Position numbers and translations under genes: made by a program. Shown here piece by piece: positions 413-45,859 of a stretch of 64,000 nt of DNA. A model generated the notes under the pieces. The model saw nothing but the letters and a program-made list of their open reading frames with translations. It was not told the origin of the DNA and did not search any database. The DNA is from Phorcus lineatus (lineage: Eukaryota > Mollusca > Gastropoda > Trochida > Trochidae), in NCBI GenBank assembly GCA_921293015.1, contig OV121089.1, positions 48,741,220 through 48,805,219 of the forward strand, given 5' to 3'. Every line of letters starts with the position of its first letter. Within the stretch, counting starts at the first letter, position 1.

Positions 413-537
413 ACAGATCATATGGAGTGAACGTGGAAGAGCTAGGAGGATAAGTTCAGCTAACTACGACGGCTCTAACATCAGGAGGGTTGTCAATACC
501 TCATCAAACAGTTATGGATTGGCCGTTGACAATACGG
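413..537 (+). CDS. LDL-receptor class B (YWTD) repeat exon
   Basis: This internal exon encodes about 41 residues of a six-bladed YWTD beta-propeller, the extracellular ligand-handling fold of LDL-receptor-related proteins. The reading begins QIIWSERGRARRISSANYDG and continues SNIRRVV...YGLAVDNT. IIWSE is the YWTD-type strand, DGSNIR is the usual turn, and GLAVD is the conserved G-(L/I)-A-(V/L)-D strand. The acceptor is a pyrimidine tract ending CTTGCAG (412). The donor is GG followed by GTGAGT (538). The exon ends in phase 1, so the leftover G joins the CT of the exon at 46443 to give an alanine codon and the next blade, ANILYWSEG. Signal peptide, EGF and class A modules are not in the window, so the family member cannot be named. 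Confidence 0.85.
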
Positions 538-3124: not shown

Positions 3125-5499
3125 ATGTGTGTATATATAACCGGTGTGTCATTCTCTCTGCAGCTAACATCCTGTATTGGAGTGAAGGTTATTTTTTGTC
3201 TCCACGTGTATATATAACCGGTGTGTCATTCTCTCTGCAGCTAACATCCAGTATTGGAGTGAAGGTTATTTTTTATCTCCACGTGTATATATAACCGGTG
3301 TGTCATTCTCTCTGCAGCTAACATCCAGTATTGGAGTGAAGGTTATTTTTTATCTCCACGTGTATATATAACCGGTGGGTCATTCTCTCTGCAGCTAACA
3401 TCCAGTATTGGAGTGAAGGTTATTTTTTATCTCCACGTGTATATATAACCGGTGTGTCATTCTCTCTGCAGCTAACATACTGTATTGGAGTGAAGGTTAT
3501 TTTTTATCTCCACGTGTATATATTACCGGTGAGTCGTTCTCTCTGCAGCTAACATACTGTATTGGAGTGAAGGTTATTTTTTATCTCCACGTGTATATAT
3601 AACCGGTGTGTCGTTCTCTCTGCAGCTAACATCCTGTATTGGAGTGAAGGTTATTTTTTATCTCCACGTGTATATATAACCGGTGGGTCATTCTCTCTGC
3701 AGCTAACATACTGTATTGGAGTGAAGGTTATTTTTTATCTCCACGTGTATATATAACCGGTGTGTCGTTCTCTCTGCAGCTAACATCCTGTATTGGAGTG
3801 AAGGTTATTTTTTATCTCCACGTGTATATATAACCGGTGTGTCGTTCTCTCTGCAGCTAACATCCTGTATTGGAGTGAAGGTTATTTTTCATCTCCACGT
3901 GTGTATATATAACCGGTGTGTCGTTCTCTCTGCAGCTAACATCCTGTATTGGAGTGAAGGTTATTTTTCATCTCCACGTGTGTATATATAACCGGTGTGT
4001 CGTTCTCTCTGCAGCTAACATCCTGTATTGGAGTGAAGGTTATTTTTTATCTCCACGTGTATATATAACCGGTGTGTCGTTCTCTCTGCAGCTAACATAC
4101 TGTATTGGAGTGAAGGTTATTTTTTATCTCCACGTGTATATATAACCGGTGAGTCGTTCTCTCTGCAGCTAACATACTGTATTGGAGTGAAGGTTATTTT
4201 TTATCTCCACGTGTATATATAACCGGTGAGTCGTTCTCTCTGCAGCTAACATCCTGTATTGGAGTGAAGGTTATTTTTTATCTCCACGTGTATATATAAC
4301 CGGTGTGTCGTTCTCTCTGCAGCTAACATACTGTATTGGAGTGAAGGTTATTTTTTATCTCCACGTGTATATATAACCGGTGTGTCGTTCTCTCTGCAGC
4401 TAACATACTGTATTGGAGTGAAGGTTATTTTTTATCTCCACGTGTATATATAACCGGTGTGTCGTTCTCTCTGCAGCTAACATACTGTATTGGAGTGAAG
4501 GTTATTTTTTATCTCCACGTGTATATATAACCGGTGAGTCGTTCTCTCTGCAGCTAACATACTGTATTGGAGTGAAGGTTATTTTTTATCTCAACGTGTA
4601 TATATAACCGGTGTGTCGTTCTCTCTGCAGCTAACATACTGTATTGGAGTGAAAGTTATTTTTTATTTTCAAGTGTATATATAACCGGTGTGTCGTTCTC
4701 TCTGCAGCTAACATCCTGTATTGGAGTGAAGGTTATTTTTTATCTCCACGTGTATATATAACCGGTGTGTCGTTCTCTCTGCAGCTAACATCCTGTATTG
4801 GAGTGAAAGTTATTTTTTATTTTCAAGTGTATATATAACCGGTGTGTCGTTCTCTCTGCAGCTAACATCCTGTATTGGAGTGAAGGTTATTTTTTATCTC
4901 CACGTGTATATATAACCGGTGTGTCGTTCTCTCTGCAGCTAACATCCTGTATTGGAGTGAAGGTTATTTTTTATCTCCACGTGTATATATAACTGATGTG
5001 TTGTTCACTCTGCAGCTAACATACTGTATTGGAGTGAAGGTTATTTTTTATCTCCACGTGTATATATAACTGATGTGTTGTTCACTCTGCAGCTAACATC
5101 CAGTATTGGAGTGAAGGTTATTTTTCATCTCCACGTGTATATATAACTGATGTGTTGCTCTCTCTGCAGCTAACATCCAGTATTGGAGTGAAGGTTATTT
5201 TTTATCTCCACGTGTATATATAACTGATGTGTTGTTCACTCTGCAGCTAACATACTGTATTGGAGTGAAGGTTATTTTTTATCTCCACGTGTATATATAA
5301 CTGATGTATTGTTCACTCTGCAGCTAACATACTGTATTGGAGTGAAGGTTATTTTTTATCTCCACGTGTATATATAACTGATGTGTTGTTCACTCTGCAG
5401 CTAACATCCAGTATTGGAGTGAAGGTTATTTTTTATCTCCACGTGTATATATAACTGATGTGTTGTTCACTCTGCAGCTAACATACTGTATTGGAGTGA

Positions 5500-8400
5500 A
5501 GGTTATTTTTTATCTCCACGTGTATATATAACCGGTGTGTCGTTCTCTCTGCAGCTAACATCCTGTATTGGAGTGAAGGTTATTTTTCATCTCCACGTGT
5601 ATATATAACTGATGTGTTGTTCACTCTGCAGCTAACATACTGTATTGGAGTGAAGGTTATTTTTCATCTCCACGTGTATATATAACTGATGTGTTGTTCA
5701 CTCTGCAGCTAACATACTGTATTGGAGTGAAGGTTATTTTTTATCTCCACGTGTATATATAACTGATGTGTTGCTCTCTCTGCAGCTAACATCCAGTATT
5801 GGAGTGAAGGTTATTTTTTATCTCCACGTGTATATATAACTGATGTGTTGTTCACTCTGCAGCTAACATACTGTATTGGAGTGAAGGTTATTTTTTATCT
5901 CCACGTGTATATATAACTGATGTATTGTTCACTCTGCAGCTAACATACTGTATTGGAGTGAAGGTTATTTTTTATCTCCACGTGTATATATAACTGATGT
6001 GTTGTTCACTCTGCAGCTAACATACTGTATTGGAGTGAAGGTTATTTTTTATCTCCACGTGTATATATAACTGATGTGTTGCTCTCTCTGCAGCTAACAT
6101 CCAGTATTGGAGTGAAGGTTATTTTTTATCTCCACGTGTATATATAACTGATGTGTTGTTCACTCTGCAGCTAACATACTGTATTGGAGTGAAGGTTATT
6201 TTTTATCTCCACGTGTATATATAACCGGTGTGTCGTTCTCTCTGCAGCTAACATCCTGTATTGGAGTGAAGGTTATTTTTCATCTCCACGTGTATATCTA
6301 ACTGATGTGTTGTTCACTCTGCAGCTAACATACTGTATTGGAGTGAAGGTTATTTTTCATCTCCACGTGTATATATAACTGATGTGTTGTTCACTCTGCA
6401 GCTAACATACTGTATTGGAGTGAAGGTTATTTTTTATCTCCACGTGTATATATAACTGATGTGTTGCTCTCTCTGCAGCTAACATCCAGTATTGGAGTGA
6501 AGGTTATTTTTTATCTCCACGTGTATATATAACTGATGTGTTGTTTACTCTGCAGCTAACATACTGTATTGGAGTGAAGGTTATTTTTCATCTCCACGTG
6601 TATATATAACTGATGTGTTGTTCACTCTGCAGCTAACATACTGTATTGGAGTGAAGGTTATTTTTTATCTCCACGTGTATATATAACTGATGTGTTGCTC
6701 TCTCTGCAGCTAACATCCAGTATTGGAGTGAAGGTTATTTTTTATCTCCACGTGTATATATAACTGATGTGTTGTTTACTCTGCAGCTAACATACTGTAT
6801 TGGAGTGAAGGTTATTTTTTATCTCCACGTGTATATATAACTGATGTATTGTTCACTCTGCAGCTAACATACTGTATTGGAGTGAAGGTTATTTTTTATC
6901 TCCACGTGTATATATAACTGATGTGTTGTTCACTCTGCAGCTAACATCCAGTATTGGAGTGAAGGTTATTTTTTATCTCCACGTGTATATATAACTGATG
7001 TGTTGCTCTCTCTGCAGCTAACATACTGTATTGGAGTGAAGGTTATTTTTCATCTCCACGTGTATATATAACTGATGTGTTGTTCACTCTGCAGCTAACA
7101 TACTGTATTGGAGTGAAGGTTATTTTTTATCTCCACGTGTATATATAACTGATGTGTTGCTCTCTCTGCAGCTAACATCCAGTATTGGAGTGAAGGTTAT
7201 TTTTTATCTCCACGTGTATATATAACTGATGTGTTGTTCACTCTGCAGCTAACATACTGTATTGGAGTGAAGGTTATTTTTTATCTCCACGTGTATATAT
7301 AACTGATGTGTTGCTCTCTCTGCAGCTAACATCCAGTATTGGAGTGAAGGTTATTTTTTATCTCCACGTGTATATATAACTGATGTCTTGCTCTCTCTGC
7401 AGCTAACATACTGTATTGGAGTGAAGGTTATTTTTTATCTCCACGTGTATATATAACCGGTGTGTTGTTCACTCTGCAGCTAACATACTGTATTGGAGTG
7501 AAGGTTATTTTTCATCTCCACGTGTATATATAACCGGTGTGTCGTTCTCTCTGCAGCTAACATACTGTATTGGAGTGAAGGTTATTTTTCATCTCCACGT
7601 GTATATATAACCGGTGTGTCGTTCTCTCTGCAGCTAACATACTGTATTGGAGTGAAGGTTATTTTTTATCTCCACGTGTATATATAACTGATGTGTTGTT
7701 CACTCTGCAGCTAACATACTGTATTGGAGTGAAGGTTATTTTTTATCTCCACGTGTATATATAACTGATGTGTTGTTCACTCTGCAGCTAACATACTGTA
7801 TTGGAGTGAAGGTTATTTTTTATCTCCACGTGTATATATAACTGATGAGTCATTCTCTCTGCAGCTAACATCCTGTATTGGAGTGAAGGTTATTTTTTAT
7901 CTCCACGTGTATATATAACTGATGTATTTTTCACTCTGCAGCTAACATACTGTATTGGAGTGAAGGTTATTTTTTATCTCCACGTGTATATATAACTGAT
8001 GTGTTGTTCACTCTGCAGCTAACATACTGTATTGGAGTGAAGGTTATTTTTTATCTCCACGTGTATATATAACTGATGTGTTGCTCTCTCTGCAGCTAAC
8101 ATACTGTATTGGAGTGAAGGTTATTTTTTATCTCCACGTGTATATATAACTGATGTGTTGTTCACTCTGCAGCTAACATACTGTATTGGAGTGAAGGTTA
8201 TTTTTTATCTCCACGTGTATATATAACTGATGTGTTGTTCACTCTGCAGCTAACATCCAGTATTGGAGTGAAGGTTATTTTTTATCTCCACGTGTATATA
8301 TAACTGATGTGTTGTTCACTCTGCAGCTAACATACTGTATTGGAGTGAAGGTTATTTTTTATCTCCACGTGTATATATAACTGATGTGTTGCTCTCTCTG

Positions 8401-11400
8401 CAGCTAACATCCAGTATTGGAGTGAAGGTTATTTTTTATCTCCACGTGTATATATAACTGATGTGTTGCTCTCTCTGCAGCTAACATCCAGTATTGGAGT
8501 GAAGGTTATTTTTTATCTCCACGTGTGTATATAACTGATGTGTTGTTCTCTCTGCAGCTAACATCCTGTATTGGAGTGAAGGTTATTTTTCATCTCCACG
8601 TGTATATATAACTGATGTGTTGCTCTCTCTGCAGCTAACATCCTGTATTGGAGTGAAGGTTATTTTTTATCTCCACGTGTATATATAACTGATGTGTTGC
8701 TCTCTCTGCAGCTAACATACTGTATTGGAGTGAAGGTTATTTTTTATCTCCACGTGTATATATAACTGATGTGTTGTTCACTCTGCAGCTAACATACTGT
8801 ATTGGAGTGACGGTTATTTTTTATCTCCACGTGTATATATAACTGATGTGTTGCTCTCTCTGCAGCTAACATACTGTATTGGAGTGAAGGTTATTTTTTA
8901 TCTCCACGTGTATATATAACTGATGTGTTGTTCACTCTGCAGCTAACATACTGTATTGGAGTGAAGGTTATTTTTTATCTCCACGTGTATATATAACTGA
9001 TGTGTTGCTCTCTCTGCAGCTAACATCCAGTATTGGAGTGAAGGTTATTTTTTATCTCCACGTGTATATATAACTGATGTGTTGTTTACTCTGCAGCTAA
9101 CATACTGTATTGGAGTGAAGGTTATTTTTCATCTCCACGTGTATATATAACTGATGTGTTGTTCACTCTGCAGCTAACATACTGTATTGGAGTGAAGGTT
9201 ATTTTTTATCTCCACGTGTATATATAACTGATGTGTTGCTCTCTCTGCAGCTAACATCCAGTATTGGAGTGAAGGTTATTTTTTATCTCCACGTGTATAT
9301 ATAACTGATGTGTTGTTTACTCTGCAGCTAACATACTGTATTGGAGTGAAGGTTATTTTTTATCTCCACGTGTATATATAACTGATGTATTGTTCACTCT
9401 GCAGCTAACATACTGTATTGGAGTGAAGGTTATTTTTTATCTCCACGTGTATATATAACTGATGTGTTGTTCACTCTGCAGCTAACATACTGTATTGGAG
9501 TGAAGGTTATTTTTTATCTCCACGTGTATATATAACTGATGTGTTGTTCACTCTGCAGCTAACATCCAGTATTGGAGTGAAGGTTATTTTTTATCTCCAC
9601 GTGTATATATAACTGATGTGTTGTTCACTCTGCAGCTAACATACTGTATTGGAGTGAAGGTTATTTTTTATCTCCACGTGTATATATAACTGATGTGTTG
9701 CTCTCTCTGCAGCTAACATCCAGTATTGGAGTGAAGGTTATTTTTTATCTCCACGTGTATATATAACTGATGTGTTGCTCTCTCTGCAGCTAACATCCAG
9801 TATTGGAGTGAAGGTTATTTTTTATCTCCACGTGTGTATATAACTGATGTGTTGTTCTCTCTGCAGCTAACATCCTGTATTGGAGTGAAGGTTATTTTTC
9901 ATCTCCACGTGTATATATAACTGATGTGTTGCTCTCTCTGCAGCTAACATACTGTATTGGAGTGAAGGTTATTTTTTATCTCCACGTGTATATATAACTG
10001 ATGTGTTGCTCTCTCTGCAGCTAACATACTGTATTGGAGTGAAGGTTATTTTTTATCTCCACGTGTATATATAACTGATGTGTTGTTCACTCTGCAGCTA
10101 ACATACTGTATTGGAGTGACGGTTATTTTTTATCTCCACGTGTATATATAACTGATGTGTTGCTCTCTCTGCAGCTAACATACTGTATTGGAGTGAAGGT
10201 TATTTTTTATCTCCACGTGTATATATAACTGATGTGTTGTTCTCTCTGCAGCTAACATACTGTATTGGAGTGAAGGTTATTTTTTATCTCCACGTGTATA
10301 TATAACTGATGTGTTGCTCTCTCTGCAGCTAACATCCAGTATTGGAGTGAAGGTTATTTTTTATCTCCACGTGTATATATAACTGATGTGTTGTTTACTC
10401 TGCAGCTAACATACTGTATTGGAGTGAAGGTTATTTTTCATCTCCACGTGTATATATAACTGATGTGTTGTTCACTCTGCAGCTAACATACTGTATTGGA
10501 GTGAAGGTTATTTTTTATCTCCACGTGTATATATAACTGATGTGTTGCTCTCTCTGCAGCTAACATCCAGTATTGGAGTGAAGGTTATTTTTTATCTCCA
10601 CGTGTATATATAACTGATGTGTTGTTTACTCTGCAGCTAACATACTGTATTGGAGTGAAGGTTATTTTTTATCTCCACGTGTATATATAACTGATGTATT
10701 GTTCACTCTGCAGCTAACATACTGTATTGGAGTGAAGGTTATTTTTTATCTCCACGTGTATATATAACTGATGTGTTGTTCACTCTGCAGCTAACATCCA
10801 GTATTGGAGTGAAGGTTATTTTTTATCTCCACGTGTATATATAACTGATGTGTTGCTCTCTCTGCAGCTAACATACTGTATTGGAGTGAAGGTTATTTTT
10901 TATCTCCACGTGTGTATATAACTGATGTGTTGTTCTCTCTGCAGCTAACATCCTGTATTGGAGTGAAGGTTATTTTTCATCTCCACGTGTATATATAACT
11001 GATGTGTTGCTCTCTCTGCAGCTAACATACTGTATTGGAGTGAAGGTTATTTTTTATCTCCACGTGTATATATAACTGATGTGTTGCTCTCTCTGCAGCT
11101 AACATACTGTATTGGAGTGAAGGTTATTTTTTATCTCCACGTGTATATATAACCGGTGTGTCGTTCTCTCTGCAGCTAACATCCTGTATTGGAGTGAAGG
11201 TTATTTTTCATCTCCACGTGTATATATAACTGATGTGTTGTTCACTCTGCAGCTAACATACTGTATTGGAGTGAAGGTTATTTTTCATCTCCACGTGTAT
11301 ATATAACTGATGTGTTGTTCACTCTGCAGCTAACATACTGTATTGGAGTGAAGGTTATTTTTTATCTCCACGTGTATATATAACTGATGTGTTGCTCTCT

Positions 11401-14400
11401 CTGCAGCTAACATCCAGTATTGGAGTGAAGGTTATTTTTTATCTCCACGTGTATATATAACTGATGTGTTGTTCACTCTGCAGCTAACATACTGTATTGG
11501 AGTGAAGGTTATTTTTTATCTCCACGTGTATATATAACTGATGTATTGTTCACTCTGCAGCTAACATACTGTATTGGAGTGAAGGTTATTTTTTATCTCC
11601 ACGTGTATATATAACTGATGTGTTGTTCACTCTGCAGCTAACATACTGTATTGGAGTGAAGGTTATTTTTTATCTCCACGTGTATATATAACTGATGTGT
11701 TGCTCTCTCTGCAGCTAACATCCAGTATTGGAGTGAAGGTTATTTTTTATCTCCACGTGTATATATAACTGATGTGTTGTTCACTCTGCAGCTAACATAC
11801 TGTATTGGAGTGAAGGTTATTTTTTATCTCCACGTGTATATATAACCGGTGTGTCGTTCTCTCTGCAGCTAACATCCTGTATTGGAGTGAAGGTTATTTT
11901 TCATCTCCACGTGTATATCTAACTGATGTGTTGTTCACTCTGCAGCTAACATACTGTATTGGAGTGAAGGTTATTTTTCATCTCCACGTGTATATATAAC
12001 TGATGTGTTGTTCACTCTGCAGCTAACATACTGTATTGGAGTGAAGGTTATTTTTTATCTCCACGTGTATATATAACTGATGTGTTGCTCTCTCTGCAGC
12101 TAACATCCAGTATTGGAGTGAAGGTTATTTTTTATCTCCACGTGTATATATAACTGATGTGTTGTTTACTCTGCAGCTAACATACTGTATTGGAGTGAAG
12201 GTTATTTTTCATCTCCACGTGTATATATAACTGATGTGTTGTTCACTCTGCAGCTAACATACTGTATTGGAGTGAAGGTTATTTTTTATCTCCACGTGTA
12301 TATATAACTGATGTGTTGCTCTCTCTGCAGCTAACATCCAGTATTGGAGTGAAGGTTATTTTTTATCTCCACGTGTATATATAACTGATGTGTTGTTTAC
12401 TCTGCAGCTAACATACTGTATTGGAGTGAAGGTTATTTTTTATCTCCACGTGTATATATAACTGATGTATTGTTCACTCTGCAGCTAACATACTGTATTG
12501 GAGTGAAGGTTATTTTTTATCTCCACGTGTATATATAACTGATGTGTTGTTCACTCTGCAGCTAACATCCAGTATTGGAGTGAAGGTTATTTTTTATCTC
12601 CACGTGTATATATAACTGATGTGTTGCTCTCTCTGCAGCTAACATACTGTATTGGAGTGAAGGTTATTTTTCATCTCCACGTGTATATATAACTGATGTG
12701 TTGTTCACTCTGCAGCTAACATACTGTATTGGAGTGAAGGTTATTTTTTATCTCCACGTGTATATATAACTGATGTGTTGCTCTCTCTGCAGCTAACATC
12801 CAGTATTGGAGTGAAGGTTATTTTTTATCTCCACGTGTATATATAACTGATGTGTTGTTCACTCTGCAGCTAACATACTGTATTGGAGTGAAGGTTATTT
12901 TTTATCTCCACGTGTATATATAAATGATGTGTTGCTCTCTCTGCAGCTAACATCCAGTATTGGAGTGAAGGTTATTTTTTATCTCCACGTGTATATATAA
13001 CTGATGTCTTGCTCTCTCTGCAGCTAACATACTGTATTGGAGTGAAGGTTATTTTTTATCTCCACGTGTATATATAACCGGTGTGTTGTTCACTCTGCAG
13101 CTAACATACTGTATTGGAGTGAAGGTTATTTTTCATCTCCACGTGTATATATAACCGGTGTGTCGTTCTCTCTGCAGCTAACATACTGTATTGGAGTGAA
13201 GGTTATTTTTCATCTCCACGTGTATATATAACCGGTGTGTCGTTCTCTCTGCAGCTAACATACTGTATTGGAGTGAAGGTTATTTTTTATCTCCACGTGT
13301 ATATATAACTGATGTGTTGTTCACTCTGCAGCTAACATACTGTATTGGAGTGAAGGTTATTTTTTATCTCCACGTGTATATATAACTGATGTGTTGTTCA
13401 CTCTGCAGCTAACATACTGTATTGGAGTGAAGGTTATTTTTTATCTCCACGTGTATATATAACTGATGAGTCATTCTCTCTGCAGCTAACATCCTGTATT
13501 GGAGTGAAGGTTATTTTTTATCTCCACGTGTATATATAACTGATGTATTTTTCACTCTGCAGCTAACATACTGTATTGGAGTGAAGGTTATTTTTTATCT
13601 CCACGTGTATATATAACTGATGTGTTGTTCACTCTGCAGCTAACATACTGTATTGGAGTGAAGGTTATTTTTTATCTCCACGTGTATATATAACTGATGT
13701 GTTGCTCTCTCTGCAGCTAACATACTGTATTGGAGTGAAGGTTATTTTTTATCTCCACGTGTATATATAACTGATGTGTTGTTCACTCTGCAGCTAACAT
13801 ACTGTATTGGAGTGAAGGTTATTTTTTATCTCCACGTGTATATATAACTGATGTGTTGTTCACTCTGCAGCTAACATCCAGTATTGGAGTGAAGGTTATT
13901 TTTTATCTCCACGTGTATATATAACTGATGTGTTGTTCACTCTGCAGCTAACATACTGTATTGGAGTGAAGGTTATTTTTTATCTCCACGTGTATATATA
14001 ACTGATGTGTTGCTCTCTCTGCAGCTAACATCCAGTATTGGAGTGAAGGTTATTTTTTATCTCCACGTGTATATATAACTGATGTGTTGCTCTCTCTGCA
14101 GCTAACATCCAGTATTGGAGTGAAGGTTATTTTTTATCTCCACGTGTGTATATAACTGATGTGTTGTTCTCTCTGCAGCTAACATCCTGTATTGGAGTGA
14201 AGGTTATTTTTCATCTCCACGTGTATATATAACTGATGTGTTGCTCTCTCTGCAGCTAACATACTGTATTGGAGTGAAGGTTATTTTTTATCTCCACGTG
14301 TATATATAACTGATGTGTTGCTCTCTCTGCAGCTAACATACTGTATTGGAGTGAAGGTTATTTTTTATCTCCACGTGTATATATAACTGATGTGTTGTTC

Positions 14401-16741
14401 ACTCTGCAGCTAACATACTGTATTGGAGTGACGGTTATTTTTTATCTCCACGTGTATATATAACTGATGTGTTGCTCTCTCTGCAGCTAACATACTGTAT
14501 TGGAGTGAAGGTTATTTTTTATCTCCACGTGTATATATAACTGATGTGTTGTTCACTCTGCAGCTAACATACTGTATTGGAGTGAAGGTTATTTTTTATC
14601 TCCACGTGTATATATAACTGATGTGTTGCTCTCTCTGCAGCTAACATCCAGTATTGGAGTGAAGGTTATTTTTTATCTCCACGTGTATATATAACTGATG
14701 TGTTGTTTACTCTGCAGCTAACATACTGTATTGGAGTGAAGGTTATTTTTCATCTCCACGTGTATATATAACTGATGTGTTGTTCACTCTGCAGCTAACA
14801 TACTGTATTGGAGTGAAGGTTATTTTTTATCTCCACGTGTATATATAACTGATGTGTTGCTCTCTCTGCAGCTAACATCCTGTATTGGAGTGAAGGTTAT
14901 TTTTTATCTCCACGTGTATATATAACTGATGTGTTGTTTACTCTGCAGCTAACATACTGTATTGGAGTGAAGGTTATTTTTTATCTCCACGTGTATATAT
15001 AACTGATGTGTTGTTCACTCTGCAGCTAACATACTGTATTGGAGTGAAGGTTATTTTTTATCTCCACGTGTATATATAACTGATGTGTTGTTCACTCTGC
15101 AGCTAACATCCAGTATTGGAGTGAAGGTTATTTTTTATCTCCACGTGTATATATAACTGATGTGTTGCTCTCTCTGCAGCTAACATACTGTATTGGAGTG
15201 AAGGTTATTTTTCATCTCCACGTGTATATATAACTGATGTGTTGTTCACTCTGCAGCTAACATACTGTATTGGAGTGAAGGTTATTTTTTATCTCCACGT
15301 GTATATATAACTGATGTGTTGCTCTCTCTGCAGCTAACATCCAGTATTGGAGTGAAGGTTATTTTTTATCTCCACGTGTATATATAACTGATGTGTTGTT
15401 CACTCTGCAGCTAACATACTGTATTGGAGTGAAGGTTATTTTTTATCTCCACGTGTATATATAACTGATGTGTTGCTCTCTCTGCAGCTAACATCCAGTA
15501 TTGGAGTGAAGGTTATTTTTTATCTCCACGTGTATATATAACTGATGTCTTGCTCTCTCTGCAGCTAACATACTGTATTGGAGTGAAGGTTATTTTTTAT
15601 CTCCACGTGTATATATAACCGGTGTGTTGTTCACTCTGCAGCTAACATACTGTATTGGAGTGAAGGTTATTTTTCATCTCCACGTGTATATATAACCGGT
15701 GTGTCGTTCTCTCTGCAGCTAACATACTGTATTGGAGTGAAGGTTATTTTTCATCTCCACGTGTATATATAACCGGTGTGTCGTTCTCTCTGCAGCTAAC
15801 ATACTGTATTGGAGTGAAGGTTATTTTTTATCTCCACGTGTATATATAACTGATGTGTTGTTCACTCTGCAGCTAACATACTGTATTGGAGTGAAGGTTA
15901 TTTTTTATCTCCACGTGTATATATAACTGATGTGTTGTTCACTCTGCAGCTAACATACTGTATTGGAGTGAAGGTTATTTTTTATCTCCACGTGTATATA
16001 TAACTGATGAGTCATTCTCTCTGCAGCTAACATCCTGTATTGGAGTGAAGGTTATTTTTTATCTCCACGTGTATATATAACTGATGTATTTTTCACTCTG
16101 CAGCTAACATACTGTATTGGAGTGAAGGTTATTTTTTATCTCCACGTGTATATATAACTGATGTGTTGTTCACTCTGCAGCTAACATACTGTATTGGAGT
16201 GAAGGTTATTTTTTATCTCCACGTGTATATATAACTGATGTGTTGCTCTCTCTGCAGCTAACATACTGTATTGGAGTGAAGGTTATTTTTTATCTCCACG
16301 TGTATATATAACTGATGTGTTGTTCACTCTGCAGCTAACATACTGTATTGGAGTGAAGGTTATTTTTTATCTCCACGTGTATATATAACTGATGTGTTGT
16401 TCACTCTGCAGCTAACATCCAGTATTGGAGTGAAGGTTATTTTTTATCTCCACGTGTATATATAACTGATGTGTTGCTCTCTCTGCAGCTAACATACTGT
16501 ATTGGAGTGAAGGTTATTTTTTATCTCCACGTGTATATATAACTGATGTGTTGCTCTCTCTGCAGCTAACATCCAGTATTGGAGTGAAGGTTATTTTTTA
16601 TCTCCACGTGTATATATAACTGATGTGTTGCTCTCTCTGCAGCTAACATCCAGTATTGGAGTGAAGGTTATTTTTTATCTCCACGTGTGTATATAACTGA
16701 TGTGTTGTTCTCTCTGCAGCTAACATCCTGTATTGGAGTGA
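5500..16741 (+). repeat. higher-order duplication, 73-unit (5,621-bp) blocks
   Basis: Rare unit variants recur at a fixed distance. TATATCTAAC is at 6291 and 11912. GAGTGACGG (C position) is at 8811 and 14432. TGATGTCTTG is at 7381 and 13002. TGATGAGTCATT is at 7843 and 13464. CGTGTGTATATAAC is at 8522 and 14143. All are 5,621 bp apart, which is 73 x 77. The same markers recur 2,541 bp (33 units) further on, at 15543, 16005, 16684 and 16973. Inside a block, 1,309 bp (17 units) separates 8522/9831 and 8811/10120. The match begins near 5500/11121, where the preceding units differ. This indicates large unequal exchanges. Confidence 0.92.
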
Positions 16742-18048
16742 AGGTTATTTTTCATCTCCACGTGTATATATAACTGATGTGTTGCTCTCTCTGCAGCTAA
16801 CATACTGTATTGGAGTGAAGGTTATTTTTTATCTCCACGTGTATATATAACTGATGTGTTGCTCTCTCTGCAGCTAACATCCTGTATTGGAGTGAAGGTT
16901 ATTTTTTATCTCCACGTGTATATATAACTGATGTGTTGTTCACTCTGCAGCTAACATACTGTATTGGAGTGACGGTTATTTTTTATCTCCACGTGTATAT
17001 ATAACTGATGTGTTGCTCTCTCTGCAGCTAACATACTGTATTGGAGTGAAGGTTATTTTTTATCTCCACGTGTATATATAACTGATGTGTTGTTCACTCT
17101 GCAGCTAACATACTGTATTGGAGTGAAGGTTATTTTTTATCTCCACGTGTATATATAACTGATGTGTTGCTCTCTCTGCAGCTAACATCCAGTATTGGAG
17201 TGAAGGTTATTTTTTATCTCCACGTGTATATATAACTGATGTGTTGCTCTCTCTGCAGCTAACATCCAGTATTGGAGTGAAGGTTATTTTTTATCTCCAC
17301 GTGTGTATATAACTGATGTGTTGTTCTCTCTGCAGCTAACATCCTGTATTGGAGTGAAGGTTATTTTTCATCTCCACGTGTATATATAACTGATGTGTTG
17401 CTCTCTCTGCAGCTAACATACTGTATTGGAGTGAAGGTTATTTTTTATCTCCACGTGTATATATAACTGATGTGTTGCTCTCTCTGCAGCTAACATACTG
17501 TATTGGAGTGAAGGTTATTTTTTATCTCCACGTGTATATATAACTGATGTGTTGTTCACTCTGCAGCTAACATACTGTATTGGAGTGACGGTTATTTTTT
17601 ATCTCCACGTGTATATATAACTGATGTGTTGCTCTCTCTGCAGCTAACATACTGTATTGGAGTGAAGGTTATTTTTTATCTCCACGTGTATATATAACTG
17701 ATGTGTTGCTCTCTCTGCAGCTAACATACTGTATTGGAGTGAAGGTTATTTTTTATCTCCACGTGTATATATAACTGATGTCTTGCTCTCTCTGCAGCTA
17801 ACATACTGTATTGGAGTGAAGGTTATTTTTTATCTCCACGTGTATATATAACCGGTGTGTCGTTCTCTCTGCAGCTAACATACTGTATTGGAGTGAAGGT
17901 TATTTTTTATCTCCACGTGTATATATAACTGATGTGTCGTTCTCTCTGCAGCTAACATCCTGTATTGGAGTGAAGGTTATTTTTTGTCTCCACGTGTGTA
18001 TATATAACTGATGTGTTGCTCTCTCTGCAGCTAACATCCTGTATTGGA

Positions 18049-18161
18049 ATTGAAAACGTGTCTTTTTGTGCAACAATGTTCTCGCTGTTAAAATGGAAGA
18101 GAACAGTAATAGCTTCACTTAGTTTATTACCAATTGCCTTCCATACACTACGAGCCTTTAC
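18049..18161. repeat. foreign cassette inside the array
   Basis: The array unit breaks after CTGTATTGGA, and about 113 bp begins with ATTGAAAACGTGTCTTTTTG. The same cassette with the same left junction is at 36817-36960. Part of it resembles the leader of the Gypsy element near 44173-44204 and 45848-45866. The array resumes with ACATCCAGTATTGG. It is probably a deleted copy of the 36817 insertion, moved by exchange between array segments, although an independent short element is possible. Confidence 0.7.
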
Positions 18162-19063
18162 ACAACATCCAGTATTGGAGTGAAGGTTATTTTTTATCTC
18201 CACGTGTATATATAACTGATGTGTTGCTCTCTCTGCAGCTAACATCCAGTATTGGAGTGAAGGTTATTTTTTATCTCCACGTGTATATATAACTGATGTG
18301 TTGCTCTCTCTGCAGCTAACATCCAGTATTGGAGTGAAGGTTATTTTTTATCTCCACGTGTATATATAACTGATGTGTTGCTCTCTCTGCAGCTAACATC
18401 CAGTATTGGAGTGAAGGTTATTTTTTATCTCCACGTGTATATATAACTGATGTGTTGCTCTCTCTGCAGCTAACATCCAGTATTGGAGTGAAGGTTATTT
18501 TTTATCTCCACGTGTATATATAACTGATGTGTTGCTCTCTCTGCAGCTAACATACTGTATTGGAGTGAAGGTTATTTTTTATCTCCACGTGTATATATAA
18601 CTGATGTCTTGCTCTCTCTGCAGCTAACATACTGTATTGGAGTGAAGGTTATTTTTTAACTCCACGTGTATATATAACTGATGTGTTGTTCACTCTGCAG
18701 CTAACATACTGTATTGGAGTGAAGGTTATTTTTTATCTCCACGTGTATATATAACTGATGTCTTGCTCTCTCTGCAGCTAACATACTGTATTGGAGTGAA
18801 GGTTATTTTTTATCTCCACGTGTATATATAACTGATGTGTTGGTCTCTCTGCAGCTAACATACTGTATTGGAGTGAAGGTTATTTTTTATCTCCACGTGT
18901 ATATATAACTGATGTCTTGCTCTCTCTGCAGCTAACATACTGTATTGGAGTGAAGGTTATTTTTTATCTCCACGTGTATATATAACTGATGTATTGTTCA
19001 CTCTGCAGCTAACATCTTGTATTGGAGTGAAGGTTATTTTTTATCTCCAAGTGTATATACAAC

Positions 19064-19386
19064 CGATAGACAGGTGCCATCGGTTGGAAAGGAAAGTTCA
19101 AGGAAGGAAACGACAAATCATTGTGAAGTTCGTGAGTCACTTGGACAAGGATGGCATTTACACCAACAGACGAAAGCTCCGGAACAAGATGGAGAACGTG
19201 TACATCAACGAGGACTTGACCCAGTACAGCAGTATTATCTTCAAGATGGCCAGAGACCTGAACAAATCTCTTTGGATAGAGAACACCTGGACTAAGGATG
19301 GACACATATTAGTTCTGGAGCAACCTGAAGGAGCAATGAAACACGTTCAGTGTAAGGATGATCTGAACAGATATGTGCATGCGTGA
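19064..19386 (+). pseudogene. LINE ORF1 C-terminal fragment
   Basis: The open frame reads IDRCHRLERK, then RQIIVKFVSHLDKDGIY, then a basic stretch, INEDLTQYSS, and WTKDGHILV before a stop at 19384-19386. This order (D-R-x-H-R-L, I-I-V-K-F-V, E-D-L-T, W-T-x-D-G) is typical of the RRM and C-terminal domain of LINE ORF1 RNA-binding proteins. The N-terminal half is absent and the frame runs back into array sequence, so the copy is 5' truncated. About 540 bp of AT-rich sequence (19387-19925), with nothing recognised in it, separates it from ORF2. Confidence 0.75.
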
Positions 19387-33297: not shown

Positions 33298-33779
33298 TAA
33301 TATATAACTGATGTGTTGTTCTCTCTGCAGCTAACATCCTGTTTTGGAGTGAAGGTTATTTTTCATCTCCACGTGTGTATATATAACCAGTGTGTTGTTC
33401 TCTCTGCAGCTAACATCATGTATTGGAGTGAAGGTTATTTTTCATCTCCACGTGTTTATATATAACCGGTGAGTCGTTCTCTCTGCAGCTAACATCCTGT
33501 ATTTGAGTGAAGGTTAATTTTCATCTCCACGTGTGTATATATAACCGGTGAGTCGTTCTCTCTGCAGCTAACATCCTGTATTGGAGTGAAGGTTATTTTT
33601 CATCTCCACGTGTGTATATATAACCAGTGTGTTGTTTTCTCTGCAGCTTACATCCTGTATTGGAGTGAAGGTTATTTTTCATCTCCACGTGTGTATACAT
33701 TGTATAACCGGTGTGTTGTTCTTTGCAGCTTACATCCTGTATTGGAATGAAGGTTATTTTTCATCTCCACGTGTATATA
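33298..33779 (+). repeat. 77-bp array continuation, older units
   Basis: About six units resume after the LINE in near-phase with the array. They are more diverged than the central array: TGTTTTGGAG, AACCAGTGTG, CAGCTTACATCC, a shortened tract (GTTCTTTGCAG) and extra TGTA. Diverged edges and a homogeneous centre are expected of arrays maintained by unequal exchange. Confidence 0.93.
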
Positions 33780-33781
33780 TA

Positions 33782-36453
33782 TGTATCATCCCAACTGCGG
33801 ATCGGCCCCATCTTAAGATGGGACGGGGGATATTAAAACATGTGAATAATATTCATATTTTATAATGATTTGTGTCAGTAAAACATGTTTTACATAGTTT
33901 TGTTATATTCTTTTCACACCTACGAAGAAAATTTGATTTGATGTTCATTTACTTCACTTTTTCACTCGGTTTCATATGGTATCTAGTACGAACGATTTAA
34001 CACTACTCAAACATTTATTTAAAGTCACATTTGATTACTGATTGAATCTCATTTGTTAAGCGACATAACAAAATCAGATCAATGTATAGATTTATATTTA
34101 AATAATAGTTTTCAGCATGTTTCAAACGACCATGCGTAGATCGAAAAGCTGACATCACAGAGACATCTTTGTATATTAGTTTCTTTACAAAAAGGTGGTA
34201 TAAACTATTAACAATCAAATTATGAAGTTATTCTAATATAGATCTAAGTTTTACAATACTAGTGATAAATTGCTTTTTCAAAAATATAAAATTAAAAAAC
34301 GTACCTGATACAGAGAAATGAATAATCCATGCAAAAACCTCCTATAAACAGAAATTAAGGTACTCTTCATCGTTACAATGCAGCACTGAATGGACGGAAT
34401 ATGTTTAAGTGTCAGCTTGGCGTGACAGAGAACGGATGATTGGACACCAATTTGCCCACCGTAGGAACTGTTAGGCTAAAACAACATATGGAGACACCAA
34501 AACCCCATGTTGTTTTAACAAAGTATTATCTTGTTTATCTACTTGGCGACTTGGTTGATTGTATCAAATGTAAAAGAAATTAAAAGTTCCTATTATCGAA
34601 GTCTGGTTCTCCAACTTTTTAGATATTTTCAAATTGTGCCAACCTTAGGGTTTGAATATTCCCTCGTAACTCATATCAATATACTAAAATCTATCTTAAT
34701 GGCGACAAATCTTTGTCACAAAGTGTTAACGAATTCCTAATAATATCTACTTATCATTTCATGAACGATACCAATCGATTTTTAAAGCTCTTTCCTAAAC
34801 GTTGTGAAAAAATGTAAGGTAGACAAAGCTTAATATAAATTTGAGTTTAGTAAGAATAATTGTAAATGTATATTTCCACCAATGTACTTGATATCTAAAT
34901 CGTTTTATGTTTGTTTCAGGAAAAGAATTTATCTAAGCATTTGCTGCCTGTTTGCTAATCCTTTTTTCTTTTTGTATATATCTTCTGAATTTTGTGTAAC
35001 ACGTGTTTTATTGAAATAAAATCCCGTTTAAATCATAGAAATATACTTACTAACCATAATACGATTACACATATTTCAGATTTTCATACAATGAAATATC
35101 GAATATTTTGCAATAAGCAATGATAGTTTCAATATCAAATCTGTATATAAATGACAGCTTCTATATCAAATTTGTATAAGCAATAACAATATGAATCATT
35201 TAGTCCTCTGAGGATATTATATTAGTACATATATGTCAGCACAAAATAACTCGATAAGTCTTAGTATATCAATAAAACTTCATTGATGTGTATTTACAAA
35301 CCTAATGCCTTTTTTCGGGGGACATGTTAAGAAGCATATTTAAAGATAACAAAACGATTAGTTAAGTACACAATATAATAACAATATTACACTGAAATGT
35401 AATTCTTCCCTCTCACCTACTCATCTCATTTGACTTATGTACGGATCAGTTGATTAACGTATTAGCAGTAAAACAACTTTCATCGAATAACAATACAATA
35501 ACAATAAACATAAACATTTGTTGTTGTTTTTGGTCTGCTTCCACCCATCAGAGATATTGCCGATAGGGGCAAATGCCTAGATACATATGAATGATGATCA
35601 TTGACTAAAACAACAAACGCTCGGCGTGTACCTTTGTAGCGTTACAAGCATGCTCATGTACAATTGGTACCCATTTTTGTCACTAATTGGAAGGTGACAC
35701 ACAGGTATTGCTGTCATAACCGAACCGGATGTTTACCAAAATCCCTTCTTTCGGACATCCCCCCCCCCCCCCCCCCCCCCCCCCCAACACACCCATCTCT
35801 GAACTACCAAGCAGGTATGTTTGCCATTTGCATCACGACACTGATCAGATCAGGTTCGATCGGAAATATGAGGAGGCATAACTGGAATTATTTACTGGAC
35901 ATCTTATAAGCATTGACGGAACGCCACTTATAGGTTAGTGTTTGTGAATTATGCTTAAAAAACATACACTTTTAGATTCGACTATCAAATACAATAAGTA
36001 CATTGGAATCTTGCTTAACGGAACGGTTTATGTGTAAGAAATTGAACTGATTACAAGGCATTAGATTAGCATTCTTGGTATTCACTAAGAGTAGGCTTTC
36101 AGTGTATAATTGAATATAATTTCTATTTTTATTTGCTTAACATGCTGTCATAATTAAATATATTTAAGAATATAATGAAATATTTCATAAGATTTTGTAT
36201 AAGAATTACTTTTGAAATCGTATTGGGCTATGATGAAAGAATCGTATGCGATGATAGATATATATAGCCAAAAAAGTCATAAAAATCAACGTAAAATCAA
36301 AATATCTTTCGATGTCCTTAAAGCGCTTATCTAAATAATATATGTTATCATGTTATTACTAAATTCAACATTAGAATAAGGATATTATGAACATGTTAAA
36401 GTATCTGCCGTCCCATCTTAAGATGGGACGTGATCCCAAGTTGGGATGATACA
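33782..36453. mobile_element. TA-flanked inverted-repeat element, 2.7 kb
   Basis: The left end begins TGTATCATCCCAACT and the right end is its inverse, AGTTGGGATGATACA. Both ends carry the internal palindrome CCCATCTTAAGATGGG. TA dinucleotides flank it at 33780-33781 and 36454-36455, and array units abut on both sides, so the insertion is clean. The TA target suggests the Tc1/mariner superfamily, but no transposase was found. The interior is AT-rich with scattered short frames that resemble nothing known. Likely non-autonomous. Confidence 0.88.
35759..35785 (+). repeat. poly-C run of 27
   Basis: An uninterrupted run of 27 C within AT-rich transposon interior. The true length may differ because such runs are error-prone in sequencing. 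Confidence 0.85.
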
Positions 36454-36455
36454 TA

Positions 36456-36816
36456 AATAACCGGTGTGTCGTTCTCTCTGCAGCTAACATCCTGTTTTGG
36501 AGTGAAGGTTATTTTTCATCTCCACGTGTATATATAACCGGTGTGTTGTTCTCTCTGCAGCTAACATCCAGTATTGGAGTGAAGGGTATTTTTCATCTCC
36601 ACATGTGTATATACAATGTATAACTGATGTGTCGTTCTCTCTGCAGCTAACATCCTGTATTGGATTGAAGGTTATTTTTCATCTCCTCGTGTGTATATAA
36701 CCGGTGTGTTGTTCTCTCTGCAGCTAACATCCTGTTTAGAGTGAAGGTTATTTTTCATCTCCACGTGTGTATATATTACCAGTGTGTCGTTCTCTCTGCA
36801 GCTAACATCCTGTATT
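36456..36816 (+). repeat. 77-bp array continuation, diverged units
   Basis: About five units with more substitutions and small indels than the main array (for example CCTGTTTAGAGTG, GAAGGGTATT and an extra ATACAATG). They end after CTGTATTGGA, where the cassette at 36817 begins, the same breakpoint as at 18049. Confidence 0.92.
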
Positions 36817-37077
36817 GGAATTGAAAACGTGTCTTTTTGTGCGTGATTTAAAAACAATGTTCTCGCTGTTAAAATGGAAGAGAACAGTAATAGCTTCACT
36901 TAGTTTATTACCAATTGCCTTCCATACATCACTACACTAACCACTAGGCTTTACACAAGCCCGAACAATCTGCACGCTTTTTATCCCACACCGAAGACTT
37001 CCTTTTCCGTCATGCGCATTACGAACTTCATTTACAATGTTACATTACTTCCGTTCCAGTGAAATGTACATCAACAG
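36817..37077. other. leader-like cassette outside the Gypsy LTR
   Basis: The segment starts ATTGAAAACGTGTCTTTTTG and reaches the LTR at 37078. On the minus strand, its distal part (GAGAACATTGTTTTTAAATC, then ACGCACAAAAAGACACG) matches the internal leader of the LTR element just past its other LTR. That leader lacks a further roughly 215 bp present here between two GCGA tetramers. It may be the remains of a tandem element copy or of a small separate insertion. A deleted copy lies at 18049-18161. Confidence 0.55.
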
Positions 37078-37537
37078 TCGCCTAGAATTTGTCATGTTGG
37101 GGAATTGGTACCGGATGGTCACACCTGGGATCAACACAAACAATCAGGAGTCAATCAGAAAGTGGAACTGATTTGCTTCAGTCGCAACCCATATTTATAT
37201 TGACTGCCTGGTTTAATCTGCATTCCCAAGCGCATTGCTAAGCGATAGATTACAATATTAATGGTTTCTATTATGCATTGAAGTTATAGAAATTACATAA
37301 GATGCGTCCACCGCTAGTAACAGAGCATAGGGGTCGGGCAGTTTACATATTATGGTGACCCAATACTTGCGGTGATAAGGGCCTGATACCTAATATTAAG
37401 GTAATGAGCCCAGCGGGGATAGCATTAGATATACAACGTGGGGTTACTGACCTATGGACGGTGTATTTAGATCTAGTGAATAAAGATATTTGTATGTAAA
37501 ATACGGGGGGACATACACGGGGTTTTGCCCGGTTATA
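37078..37537 (-). repeat. 3' LTR of the Gypsy element
   Basis: Matches 45860-46298 over its length, from TCGCCTAGAA to GCCCGGTTATA, with scattered substitutions and an extra segment (TGGGGAATTGGTACC) near its left edge. On the minus strand the purine-rich GCGTGGGGATA lies just before it, a plausible polypurine tract. Ends are not canonical TG/CA, so boundaries are approximate. Confidence 0.85.
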
Positions 37538-37716
37538 ATATCCCCACGCTTCGTGAAGCTTTTGACCGCAAAAGCCAAATTATTGATCTACAAGTTTATA
37601 AGAATAATAAAAATCTAAGCATAAACATCGACAAAAAACATGATATCTAAAATACAAAGTCAAACGTCACACAAAGAATACATGAATACATGTGGCTCTA
37701 GTAATAATGCCCGTCT

Positions 37717-40233
37717 TTACATATTATTGTAAATTGTTGTTTGATTTGGCATGAGGAATAATCCATGATAGATTTGAATAACATAGGCTGCGAAAGGTTG
37801 ATGAAATATGTTTCTCAATTTCCTAGCAGTAAAAATTGAAATGCGTACTTGGTTCAGTATGGATAAAGATTTCTTACTGAGGAGGTTGTTTACTGTGAAT
37901 GCAGGCCAATCAACGCTAAGGGTTGGGAAGAAATAACCAGAGATGCGGAAATGATCAACAGAATCTGGAGAGAGAACGTGCCAGTAGGTAGGACAAAGTG
38001 TCAGAGATAGTAAAGGTACCATAACACAATCAGGGCCATTGGTGAGTTCTAGTGCAAGGCCATTGTGTTGATTTGATTGGCGCTGAAAGATTATGAGGAA
38101 AGGATAGAAGTAACAGCAAGCGTGATAATGCCAAGCAGGATGGAAACATGGTAGTCAGCAAGATCAGAGATGACAAAGTCAGGTGAAGTAGTCGTAGCTG
38201 TCTGATAGTGCAAGGAAGGTGCTTGGATAGCTTTTGCTGGAGTAACTCGGGTGACTAGAAGAAGTGCTGCCGAGAGTGTGCGAACTTTGAAAAACATCCA
38301 GACAAACAAAATGAGGGACAGAAGCTGTAATGGCTATTATTGAGATTTTGTCTGGCCAAGAAGCTGGTAAAGTAATTTCACCATCAAGGAGAGGTTCCGA
38401 AATTGATTGAAAAATTGTTTTGGATTTGCGGGCAGCTTCCGCAACACATTTAAGGCTGAGATGAGCTTTGTGATCAGAAGCCAAAACGTCAGATATTTTG
38501 TGAGAGTATACCGGTAAGTTAAATTTTGGAATGGTGAAATTGATTGGTTTCCAAAAGGTGTTTTTTCAGTGATACTTGAGAGAACATTGTCATGAAAAAA
38601 AATGTGGTAGTAAAGCGAGATTTACAGGGTGAAGGTGAGAGATCTGAGTCTGCGAATGGCGACATGAGCCAAATGGAGCAGGATAGAACAGCTCTTCTGT
38701 GGAGAGAGAACAGTAACAAGGAGTAGATATGAGACAACAGTTACACACTGAAATAACACAGTGTGAGCTAGGACAAGTAAGGTTTAGAAAAGGAACTCGG
38801 TAAACAAGAACATTAGAATCGTCAATAGGATAAAGATTCGGTGGTTGCTGTTCTGTGATGTAGCGGATGTCACACAATGACTTTATAAGATTTTTGCTAT
38901 TTTGAAAGAGCGCAAGACTACAAGAAAGTTTAGGAGTAGAGTCGAGTGGTACACGGAATACACAGAAGATAGCATTATCGTCTCCAGTGCACTTTTTCAG
39001 AAGGTCAGTATCAAAGTTTATGTGATACTTTGAGTCAGAAGAGATAGCAAATGAGGATGGTAGAAATAGTTTTGTCGAGTGGGATGACGAGTGGGATGAC
39101 GTGGAGTTAACAGGAACAGGAAGGGATAGTACGCCGGACAGATGGAAGGGTGTACTTAAAGATGATAATGGAAATTTAACAGAGACGTAGATATGTCACC
39201 TTGTGCGAGCAAAGATGAATTTAGCATGTGAATAATAATAACTTGGACTGGTTTGGAGGAGCTTGACATTTTTATACTTATCTGCTAAAATTCCCGAAAT
39301 ATGATGAACTGTTTGCTCGAAAATTGTAGGAGCAATGAGAAGGGGGGGGGTGTCCAAAATGCCTAATTTTAATTCCTCCAGTTGATCTGATCAATAAGGA
39401 GAGAGGTAAGATAGACAAGAGTAGTGCGCATGTTTTTGGCATTATTCTCGATAGCTGAAGCGGTAGAAGTGATGGCATCATGATTTGCCTTAACACCTTT
39501 TAGAGCATTTTTAAAATCTTGTATCAACTAGCTTAATGAAAGAAGAAAGGTGGGCAGAATGTTGCTGCATAACATTAGCTAGGTTGATGTCATGTTTTGT
39601 TAGGGCATTGATGTGTTGAGCCAAAATGTTGATGCATTTGTCGTGGCTGTTCCAATTAATGTCTTGGAGAGGGATCCCACAAAACTTAAAACAGTCCGTT
39701 TTGTTCTTGTAAATGTGGGAATCTTTGATTCTAGAATTAGTTTGATCATGTTTTGCCTTGTCTCATTCAAATGCGAGATGCACTGTGTCTTAATGACATT
39801 CAAATGCATCTGTATCTGATGAAGCAGTGCACAGGTACTATTGTCTTGATGACATCCAGCCATTGTTGGGATGTTGGCTACCTTGGGCATCTTAATTTCA
39901 AAGGTATGCACCCAGTAGTCAGTGGCAAAATGTACCTGTGCAGCTGGCTTGAAGACTATGCCGAATTTGAGGCGTTGAACCGGACAACTGCACAGGACAG
40001 GTTTCACGAAAAGGAGGACAAGAGCAAGGTCCATGAGACTCCAAGTTGAACCCTTGGAGAAAGAAAAAATAAGAGCACCATTTGAGGACATGACCTGACT
40101 GATAAGAATGATGTGACCACCAACATCTTAACAATCTAGCACTATAAGACACAGCAGGATAACTGTACAGATTGTGATCAATTACTTCCAGGTATCTATT
40201 ACAATCTCTCCTAGGAAAACATTGATAGCTCAT
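37717..40233 (-). pseudogene. envelope-like gene, baculovirus F / errantivirus type
   Basis: A broken frame series downstream of the integrase end. The first intact stretch (39600-40091) has a hydrophobic signal-like segment (DLALVLLFVKPVLC), then a GIVFKP...YW segment characteristic of F-type retroelement envelopes. Its end shows a furin-type R-T-K-R site followed by a glycine- and hydrophobic-rich stretch (VLSFVGSLSKTL) resembling an F-protein fusion peptide. Further fragments continue in shifting frames to about 37717. At least six frame breaks are present. Such proteins mediate membrane fusion in related elements; this copy cannot be expressed intact. The assignment is from motif order only. 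Confidence 0.72.
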
Positions 40234-40319
40234 GTTTCCTATTTCAGTGAAGCACTGGAGTACTTATGTACTTTACGACGTGATTTACCATTCATAGTTT
40301 TTATCTTGTGAAAATGGTT

Positions 40320-40745
40320 GACTAGGAAGGGATCAATATTGGAAGCTGGTTCCCAAGTTCTTTCTGAATTATCCTTCCACTTGATATGGTACCACTTGGT
40401 ACCATTTTGAATTTTGCATTTCAGTATGCGCTCAACTGGATAGATTGTATCATCGTTTGATGCATTGTCCTGTTGTGTTGACTGAGGTGGCGTATCATGT
40501 GGGTCAGATGGTTGTCAAAATCTGCGTCGTCATCAGAAGTGCTTTGAGGTGGCAGTTGATTTCCAATATTTTGCACGGGATCTGGAAGACGATCATTGTG
40601 CTGTGGACGTGCAATGTGGAGTTCGAGGCAATAAGAATGTATGTGTGCTTTGTGTGTTTTCCCCGTGTCTACGTATTGAAGCTTGTACGTATGATTGGGA
40701 GCTACCTCAAGGATAGTGAGAGGACCTACCCACTTAACTGTGAGT
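40320..40745 (-). pseudogene. integrase C-terminus (GPY/F) with chromodomain
   Basis: On the minus strand, about 40740 to 40590 reads WVGPLTILEVAPNHTYKLQY and TGKTHKAH, the SH3-like GPY/F module of Gypsy integrases. About 40440 to 40330 reads YPVERILKCKIQNGTKWY and IKWKDNSERTWEPASNI. That is a chromodomain: V-E-x-I-L, then the Y-x-I-K-W aromatic strand, then T-W-E-P-x-x-N-I. In chromoviruses this domain tethers the integrase to modified histone H3 and biases insertion. In-frame stops occur between the two modules. The preceding catalytic core (H-H-C-C and D-D-E) is absent. Confidence 0.82.
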
Positions 40746-40769
40746 TAAGTTGAATGTCCCGGTTGCATT

Positions 40770-44200: not shown

Positions 44201-44208
44201 TAGTTTAA

Positions 44209-45844: not shown

Positions 45845-45859
45845 CTAAAGACAACGTTC

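What the first reader, a model, noticed from the sequence alone, without database searches (positions are those of the whole stretch)
3125..19063. A gene's own splice acceptor amplified about 206 times upstream of the real exon
Every 77-bp unit contains the intron end (pyrimidine tract, CTGCAG) and the first about 25 coding bases (ANILYWSEG) of the YWTD exon at 46443. The true acceptor is the last unit. The array therefore arose by tandem duplication across an intron-exon boundary and is now a field of decoy 3' splice sites inside the same intron. Most units also have CTGAT, a fair branch-point match, about 20 bases before the AG. Spliceosome choice among about 200 near-identical acceptors is unusual and could give skipping, delay or many minor isoforms.
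Basis: partly seen in the sequence, partly recalled or inferred. Interest (0 to 1): 0.9.

Follow-up and report, generated by a model that had tools for sequence, protein, structure and literature searches.

The report
Gene's own splice acceptor repeated 200-fold
In an LDL-receptor-like animal gene, a short piece spanning the end of an intron and the start of the next coding exon has been copied over 200 times inside that intron, leaving a long row of look-alike splice sites in front of the real one.

Summary
The array is real: 206 units of 77 bp at 3125-19063 and at least 12 more copies nearer the exon; 217 of 218 keep the acceptor AG. The unit joins ~50 nt of intron end to the first ~27 bases of the YWTD exon at 46443. 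A paralog in the same genome has this boundary once, without an array, which settles the origin. The flanking exons are one gene: 13 paralog pairs match, with A-B gaps of 0.19-3.9 kb (here 45.9 kb), and two further exons of this copy, 50 kb upstream and 78 kb downstream, join into one open frame. By local sequence the copies rival the real acceptor: 115 of 216 score at least as high. Most lack a nearby donor, but 36 of 41 donor-bearing intervals form 57-nt in-frame, stop-free cassettes. Best explanation: a young, unstable intronic VNTR, mostly bypassed in splicing; decoy use is untested, since no RNA could be examined. The nearest precedent found is the ABCA7 VNTR, which repeats a donor. New variant of a known kind.

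The parts
413..537 (+). Exon A, YWTD/LDLR-B coding exon upstream of the array; donor GTGAGT from 538
   Evidence: With exon B aligns to LRP4/LRP2/LRP6 propellers; paralog exons A
3125..18050 (+). Main 77-bp array, 194 units in 39 haplotypes, each ~50 nt of intron end + first ~27 nt of exon B
18051..18160 (+). ~110-bp break in the array, homologous to sequence at 36.82-36.93 kb
   Evidence: 18030-18147 against 36801-36928, 92% over 128 bp
18161..19067 (+). Second part of the array, 12 units (the first truncated, without AG)
33300..33782 (+). Array fragment, 6 units (79-82 bp spacing), more diverged
33783..36456 (.). TIR element (ATGTATCATCCCAAC...GTTGGGATGATACAT) between two array fragments; strand not determined
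   Evidence: (I3)
36457..36820 (+). Array fragment; 4 units by the core scan, TRF 4.6 copies
37113..46298 (-). LTR retrotransposon (repeats 37113-37537 and 45880-46298, 94%; RT on the minus strand); its right end abuts the last array fragment
46299..46442 (+). Last array units and the true acceptor (CTCTCTGCAG|CTAAC)
46443..46596 (+). Exon B, source of the exonic part of the unit; donor CAG|GTGAGT
3472..3528 (+). Example of a donor-bearing unit: 57-nt stop-free, phase 1-1 potential cassette ending CCG|GTGAGT

Best explanation
A 77-79 bp segment straddling the 3' splice site of exon B in an LDLR-class-B (YWTD) gene was tandemly duplicated and amplified to more than 200 copies; mobile elements now stand between its parts. 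The derivation from a single-copy boundary is shown by sequence and by the paralog; amplification by unequal exchange is inferred. In splicing, most copies are expected to be bypassed: the last copy leads into exon B with its strong donor 154 nt away and keeps the reading frame. The array is then a mostly tolerated, probably copy-number-variable intronic repeat that imposes some mis-splicing load (inferred; no RNA data).
For: 218 copies, one strand, none in shuffles. In the closest paralog (L027) the boundary occurs once, about 80% identical over 56-60 bp spanning intron and exon, with exons A and B about 1.5 kb apart. A 77-mer search of the own genome (957.8 Mb) matches only this window, 13 matches. 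P1, A, B and C join in one open frame with GT-AG ends. Recent block exchange: 48 units repeated at a lag of 73 units with 2 differences in 3,696 bp. Donor of exon B 9.4 bits on a recalled matrix; 144 of 205 main-array decoys have no donor of 3.3 or more within 18-300 nt. Using the neighbouring copy 46364 with exon B's donor gives a stop 27 codons on.
Against: 61 of 205 main-array decoys do have a donor of 5 or more within 300 nt, a larger share than 827 control AGs of the same intron (30% against 16.6%), so lack of donors cannot explain tolerance everywhere. 115 of 216 decoy acceptors score at least as high as the true one. The decoy at 46364 shares exon B's donor. If splicing is co-transcriptional, main-array decoys are available tens of kb before the true site. 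Tolerance itself is not demonstrated. The splice matrices are recalled approximations.
Confidence: 0.65

Rival explanations
1. The decoys are used often. Exon A is joined to array units, reading runs into a stop about 43 codons on, and transcripts are truncated or decayed, so this copy is a weak or dying gene.
For: Acceptor scores equal the true site and exceed the family mean (units mean 5.9, n=216; family mean 3.2 in 26 of 27 sites, one site could not be placed). Joining exon A in silico to the 217 other copies gives a stop 43 codons later in 196. dN/dS against L027 is 0.43; other computable pairs are 0.13-0.30, several with near-saturated dS and five not computable.
Against: Four exons are intact with GT-AG ends and one open frame over about 174 kb. 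dN/dS is below 1. In ABCA7, the passages I saw report transcripts that keep a single repeat unit, not many.
Confidence: 0.2
2. The donor-bearing units act as decoy exons that hold the spliceosome and detain the intron, as proposed for OGT, so copy number tunes expression.
For: 36 of 41 CCGGTG-bearing intervals form 57-nt stop-free phase 1-1 cassettes, 4 of them with GTGAGT. For OGT, U2AF binds the decoy 3' splice sites and blocking the decoy 5' splice site promotes splicing (PMC12017769 passages).
Against: 168 of 218 units have CTGAT in place of the CCGGTG donor. No sign of selection for donors. No RNA.
Confidence: 0.08
3. Copy number or large block repeats are inflated by assembly; the true array is shorter.
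For: Near-identical 3.7-kb block at a lag of 5.6 kb.
Against: The other repeated blocks differ by 1-6 bases and have different lags; the outlying fragments and the boundary do not depend on copy number.
Confidence: 0.05
4. Satellite first: a genomic satellite was captured and became the exon boundary.
For: None found.
Against: Exon B has homologues in 14 of 14 paralog loci and in LRP proteins; single-copy boundary in L027; 77-mer matches only in this window.
Confidence: 0.01

Closest known systems
ABCA7 intron 18 VNTR (PMC5954066; passages seen)
   Same: Tandem intronic array touching an exon, whose unit includes that exon's own splice site; up to hundreds of copies (about 12-427)
   Different: ABCA7 repeats the donor in a 25-bp unit; here the acceptor plus ~27 coding bases in a 77-bp unit. 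ABCA7 has population and cDNA data; none here.
EBV IR1/BamW repeats (PMC12451641; passages seen)
   Same: Tandemly repeated splice sites in one transcript
   Different: 3-kb units with whole exons (W1, W2) that are largely all included; here mostly only the acceptor half, use unknown
Decoy exons in detained introns, e.g. OGT (PMC12017769; passages seen)
   Same: Extra splice sites inside an intron; donor-bearing units resemble minimal decoy exons
   Different: Decoys studied by experiment; here over 200 copies made by tandem duplication, function untested
Paralog L027, same genome
   Same: Homologous exons A and B and homologous intron end
   Different: Boundary present once; A-B about 1.5 kb apart

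Membership tests
LDLR class B (YWTD) propeller genes | Sequence homology of the exon A+B product to YWTD propellers | tested here: met
   phmmer against PDB: LRP4 7.4e-48, LRP2 5e-40, LRP6 about 5e-20
LDLR class B (YWTD) propeller genes | Pfam Ldl_recept_b above curated cut-off | tested here: not met
   19 bits against cut-off 21 on the 93-aa piece; a paralog's exon B also scores below it, 16.9. The piece is short, so I use 'YWTD-like' by homology.
Intronic VNTR that includes its own exon's splice site (ABCA7 type) | Tandem unit contains the adjacent exon's splice site | tested here: met
   217 of 218 copies carry the acceptor of exon B; acceptor, not donor
Intronic VNTR that includes its own exon's splice site (ABCA7 type) | Copy number varies between individuals | not testable with these tools
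   Only one assembly; block duplications suggest instability
Intronic VNTR that includes its own exon's splice site (ABCA7 type) | Array changes splicing | not testable with these tools
   No RNA data
Decoy exon in a detained intron | Both acceptor and donor present in the decoy | tested here: inconclusive
   36 of 41 CCGGTG-bearing intervals are 57-nt stop-free cassettes; most units lack a donor of their own
Decoy exon in a detained intron | Intron is retained or detained | not testable with these tools
   No RNA data
Dispersed satellite DNA | Copies at several genomic places | tested here: not met
   13 matches, all in this window (the tool skips very common words and did not list the main array itself, so a high-copy array elsewhere could be missed); none in 130 kb of flanks nor, beyond the single boundary in L027, in 14 paralog loci

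The most novel reading that the evidence does not exclude
The array is a functional splicing field: acceptor copies seed spliceosomes that delay or detain this intron, and donor-bearing units are sometimes spliced in as in-frame 19-residue cassettes (ANILYWSEGYFLSPRVYIT), so array length sets output and makes a length-variable receptor propeller.
Probability: 0.08. Interest if true: 0.92.

Novelty: new variant of a known kind. Interest (0 to 1): 0.62.

Why it matters
One intron offers more than 200 nearly identical 3' splice sites in series before the true one, with natural variation in branch-point-like, pyrimidine and donor motifs. Reads from this gene would show directly whether an acceptor is chosen by first availability, by local strength or by pairing with a donor across the exon. 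It also shows that an exon boundary can be amplified on the acceptor side, the mirror of the disease-linked ABCA7 donor array.

Tried and rejected
Two-gene explanation: rejected. Two-exon dead fragment: I held this open when no neighbour exon was found in 30 kb upstream and 40 kb downstream, nor after 10 kb more on each side; P1 and C were then found further out. P0 and D were not found in the stretches fetched. Satellite-first: disfavoured. RNA structure or known RNA: 0 Rfam matches in the window; one 308-nt piece of the array folds at z -1.2. A first fuzzy-pattern scan found only 29 copies and suggested a 9-unit period; its matching was faulty and one search replaced it. Lag statistics and block comparison show repeated blocks rather than one regular higher-order period. 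Invariance of positions -8 to +6 in 194 units as evidence of selection: not claimed, too few independent variants. A simple 'no donors, so harmless' model: only partly holds. An apparent exon at L016 was set aside as probable mobile-element coding sequence. Protein search: nothing. DNA pattern in viral and prokaryote collections: 0. Paper searches answered; none listed an acceptor-side array, a statement about these searches only. An exact genome-wide count of the unit by pattern was sought but did not complete.
Full report
WHAT IS THERE. The window holds a 77-bp tandem array at 3129-18048 and 18164-19067. A core scan found 218 copies (194, 12, 6, 4 and 2 in five places), all on the + strand, none in 20 shuffles, and 217 of 218 with AG at the acceptor; it missed at least one copy with a deletion near 36.72 kb. 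The copy at 46443 is the real intron end and exon start. The unit consensus is GTGTATATATAACTGATGTGTTGTTCTCTCTGCAG|CTAACATACTGTATTGGAGTGAAGGTTATTTTTTATCTCCAC: about 50 nt of intron end (read cyclically, from ATTTTT on) and about 27 nt that match exon B up to GAAGGTT, after which exon B continues TAGGAAAC and the unit ATTTTT.

ONE GENE. Exon A (413-537) and exon B (46443-46596) give a product that aligns across their junction to the YWTD propellers of LRP4, LRP2 and LRP6. Pfam Ldl_recept_b scores 19 bits, below its cut-off of 21. The window lies at C15:48741220-48805219 of a 957.8-Mb assembly. A protein search of that genome gave 32 matches, 26 of them on C15, two of these the window's own exons. 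I fetched 14 paralog loci: 13 have both exons in the same order and strand, 189-3863 bp apart, and by eye in the same phase; in one only B was found. Here the A-B intron is 45.9 kb. Stepwise fetching of the flanks found exon P1 at C15:48691380-48691551 (61% identical over 57 residues to L027's P1, E 3e-18) and exon C at C15:48865793-48865875 (65% over 26 residues, E 2e-6). A weaker hit for C in L013 (42% over 24 residues, E 0.002, minus strand) looks like reverse transcriptase and was set aside. P1, A, B and C join in silico at GT-AG ends into one open frame, so this copy has introns of about 50, 46 and 78 kb. P0 and D were not found in the fetched stretches.

ORIGIN. In the closest paralog, L027 (C15 42.05 Mb), the intron end and exon start occur once and match the unit at about 80% over 56-60 bp, spanning the boundary; its A-B distance is about 1.5 kb. 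Further upstream the intronic part of the unit is only weakly recognisable there. NG86 on exons A+B against L027 gives dS 0.64 and dN 0.27. Since L027 lacks the array, the array most simply arose after that duplication. The 77-mer search of the own genome returned 13 matches, all inside this window; the tool skips very common words, and indeed did not list the main array itself, so a pure high-copy array elsewhere could be missed. No copy lies in 130 kb of flanks or in the other 13 paralog loci.

HISTORY. The 194 main units fall into 39 haplotypes. A block of 48 units recurs at a lag of 73 units with 2 differences in 3,696 bp, and four further, partly overlapping, block pairs of 14-35 units recur. 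The main array is more uniform (mean distance 0.057) than the fragments at 33.3 kb (0.119) and 36.5 kb (0.071). Mobile-element sequence now lies between the fragments: retroelement ORFs between 19 and 33 kb, a TIR element, and an LTR retrotransposon with 94% identical repeats; 36821-37112 is unassigned. A 110-bp segment at 18051-18160 repeats sequence at 36.82-36.93 kb, which links the main array and the 36-kb fragment.

TWO UNIT CLASSES. 168 copies read CTGAT about 20 nt before the AG (branch-point-like, by recalled consensus); 43 read CCGGTG, 6 of them CCGGTGAGT; 7 are other. In the paralog the position reads GGCGTGTTC, closer to the CCGGTG class, so CTGAT is probably derived (inference). 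The true acceptor has neither. Of 41 intervals of at most 90 nt that contain CCGGTG, 36 give a 57-nt, phase 1-1, stop-free stretch from acceptor to donor, encoding ANILYWSEGYFLSPRVYIT or a near variant; 4 are 59 nt with a stop and 1 is 64 nt. Joining exon A to a copy and reading on gives a stop 43 codons later in 196 of 217 copies.

SPLICE STRENGTH. With matrices recalled from memory (approximate, vertebrate-like), copies score 3.8-7.7 (n=216), the true acceptor 6.4, and 26 of 27 family acceptors that could be scored average 3.2 (L027's exon B acceptor 10.4); 115 of 216 copies reach the true score. Exon B's donor scores 9.4, family donors 0.4-7.6. Of 205 main-array copies, 61 have a donor of 5 or more within 18-300 nt and 144 have none of 3.3 or more; of 827 control AGs in the same intron 16.6% have a donor of 5 or more. 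So the array is not short of donors overall, and the copy at 46364 shares exon B's donor (its use gives a stop 27 codons on). Both speak against a complete exon-definition shield.

HOW IT MOST LIKELY WORKS. Shown: a tandem array of the gene's own acceptor, derived from a single-copy boundary, in a gene copy whose four exons found look intact. Inferred: amplification by unequal exchange, copy-number variation, and splicing that mostly reaches the last copy. The alternative, heavy use of the decoys, remains open because no RNA could be examined.

KNOWN RELATIVES. The ABCA7 intron 18 VNTR has a 25-bp unit that includes the exon 18 donor, about 12-427 copies, and an observed transcript that keeps one unit (PMC5954066, passages). 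The present case is its acceptor-side mirror, with coding bases in the unit. Decoy exons (PMC12017769, passages) and EBV IR1 (PMC12451641, passages) are more distant. Nine answered paper searches listed no acceptor-side array.

Noticed in passing
58408-59450: 45-bp tandem array (23 copies); on the minus strand 195 aa are open with a 15-residue unit (about RYETKMSSTNRYSYL). Could be a repeat-coding exon or chance.
   Followed up: no
27215-27534: A second, unrelated tandem repeat that also has a 77-bp period (4.2 copies), just before a reverse-transcriptase ORF.
   Followed up: no
25344-26116: Large imperfect palindrome (about 790 nt, 86% self-match on the opposite strand).
   Followed up: no
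about 20050-20100: ORF with GDIESNPGP, which resembles a 2A peptide (motif recalled); no Pfam match for this ORF.
   Followed up: no
48017-49187: Tc1/mariner-like transposase in two overlapping frames (HTH_Tnp_Tc3_2, DDE_3).
   Followed up: partly
50593-55433: Retroelement with RVT and weak RNase H-like matches in one ORF and further long ORFs without Pfam match.
   Followed up: partly
18051-18160 and about 36820-36928: Shared segment at the same point of the unit in both places; either copied with the array or part of an inserted element.
   Followed up: partly
G000 C15, 36.05-36.53 Mb and other places: Clustered family of YWTD-exon paralogs; 26 of 32 listed matches lie on the window's contig.
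   Followed up: partly
Gene of the window, C15:48691380-48865875: This copy has three introns of about 50, 46 and 78 kb, whereas the A-B introns of 13 paralogs are 0.19-3.9 kb.
   Followed up: partly
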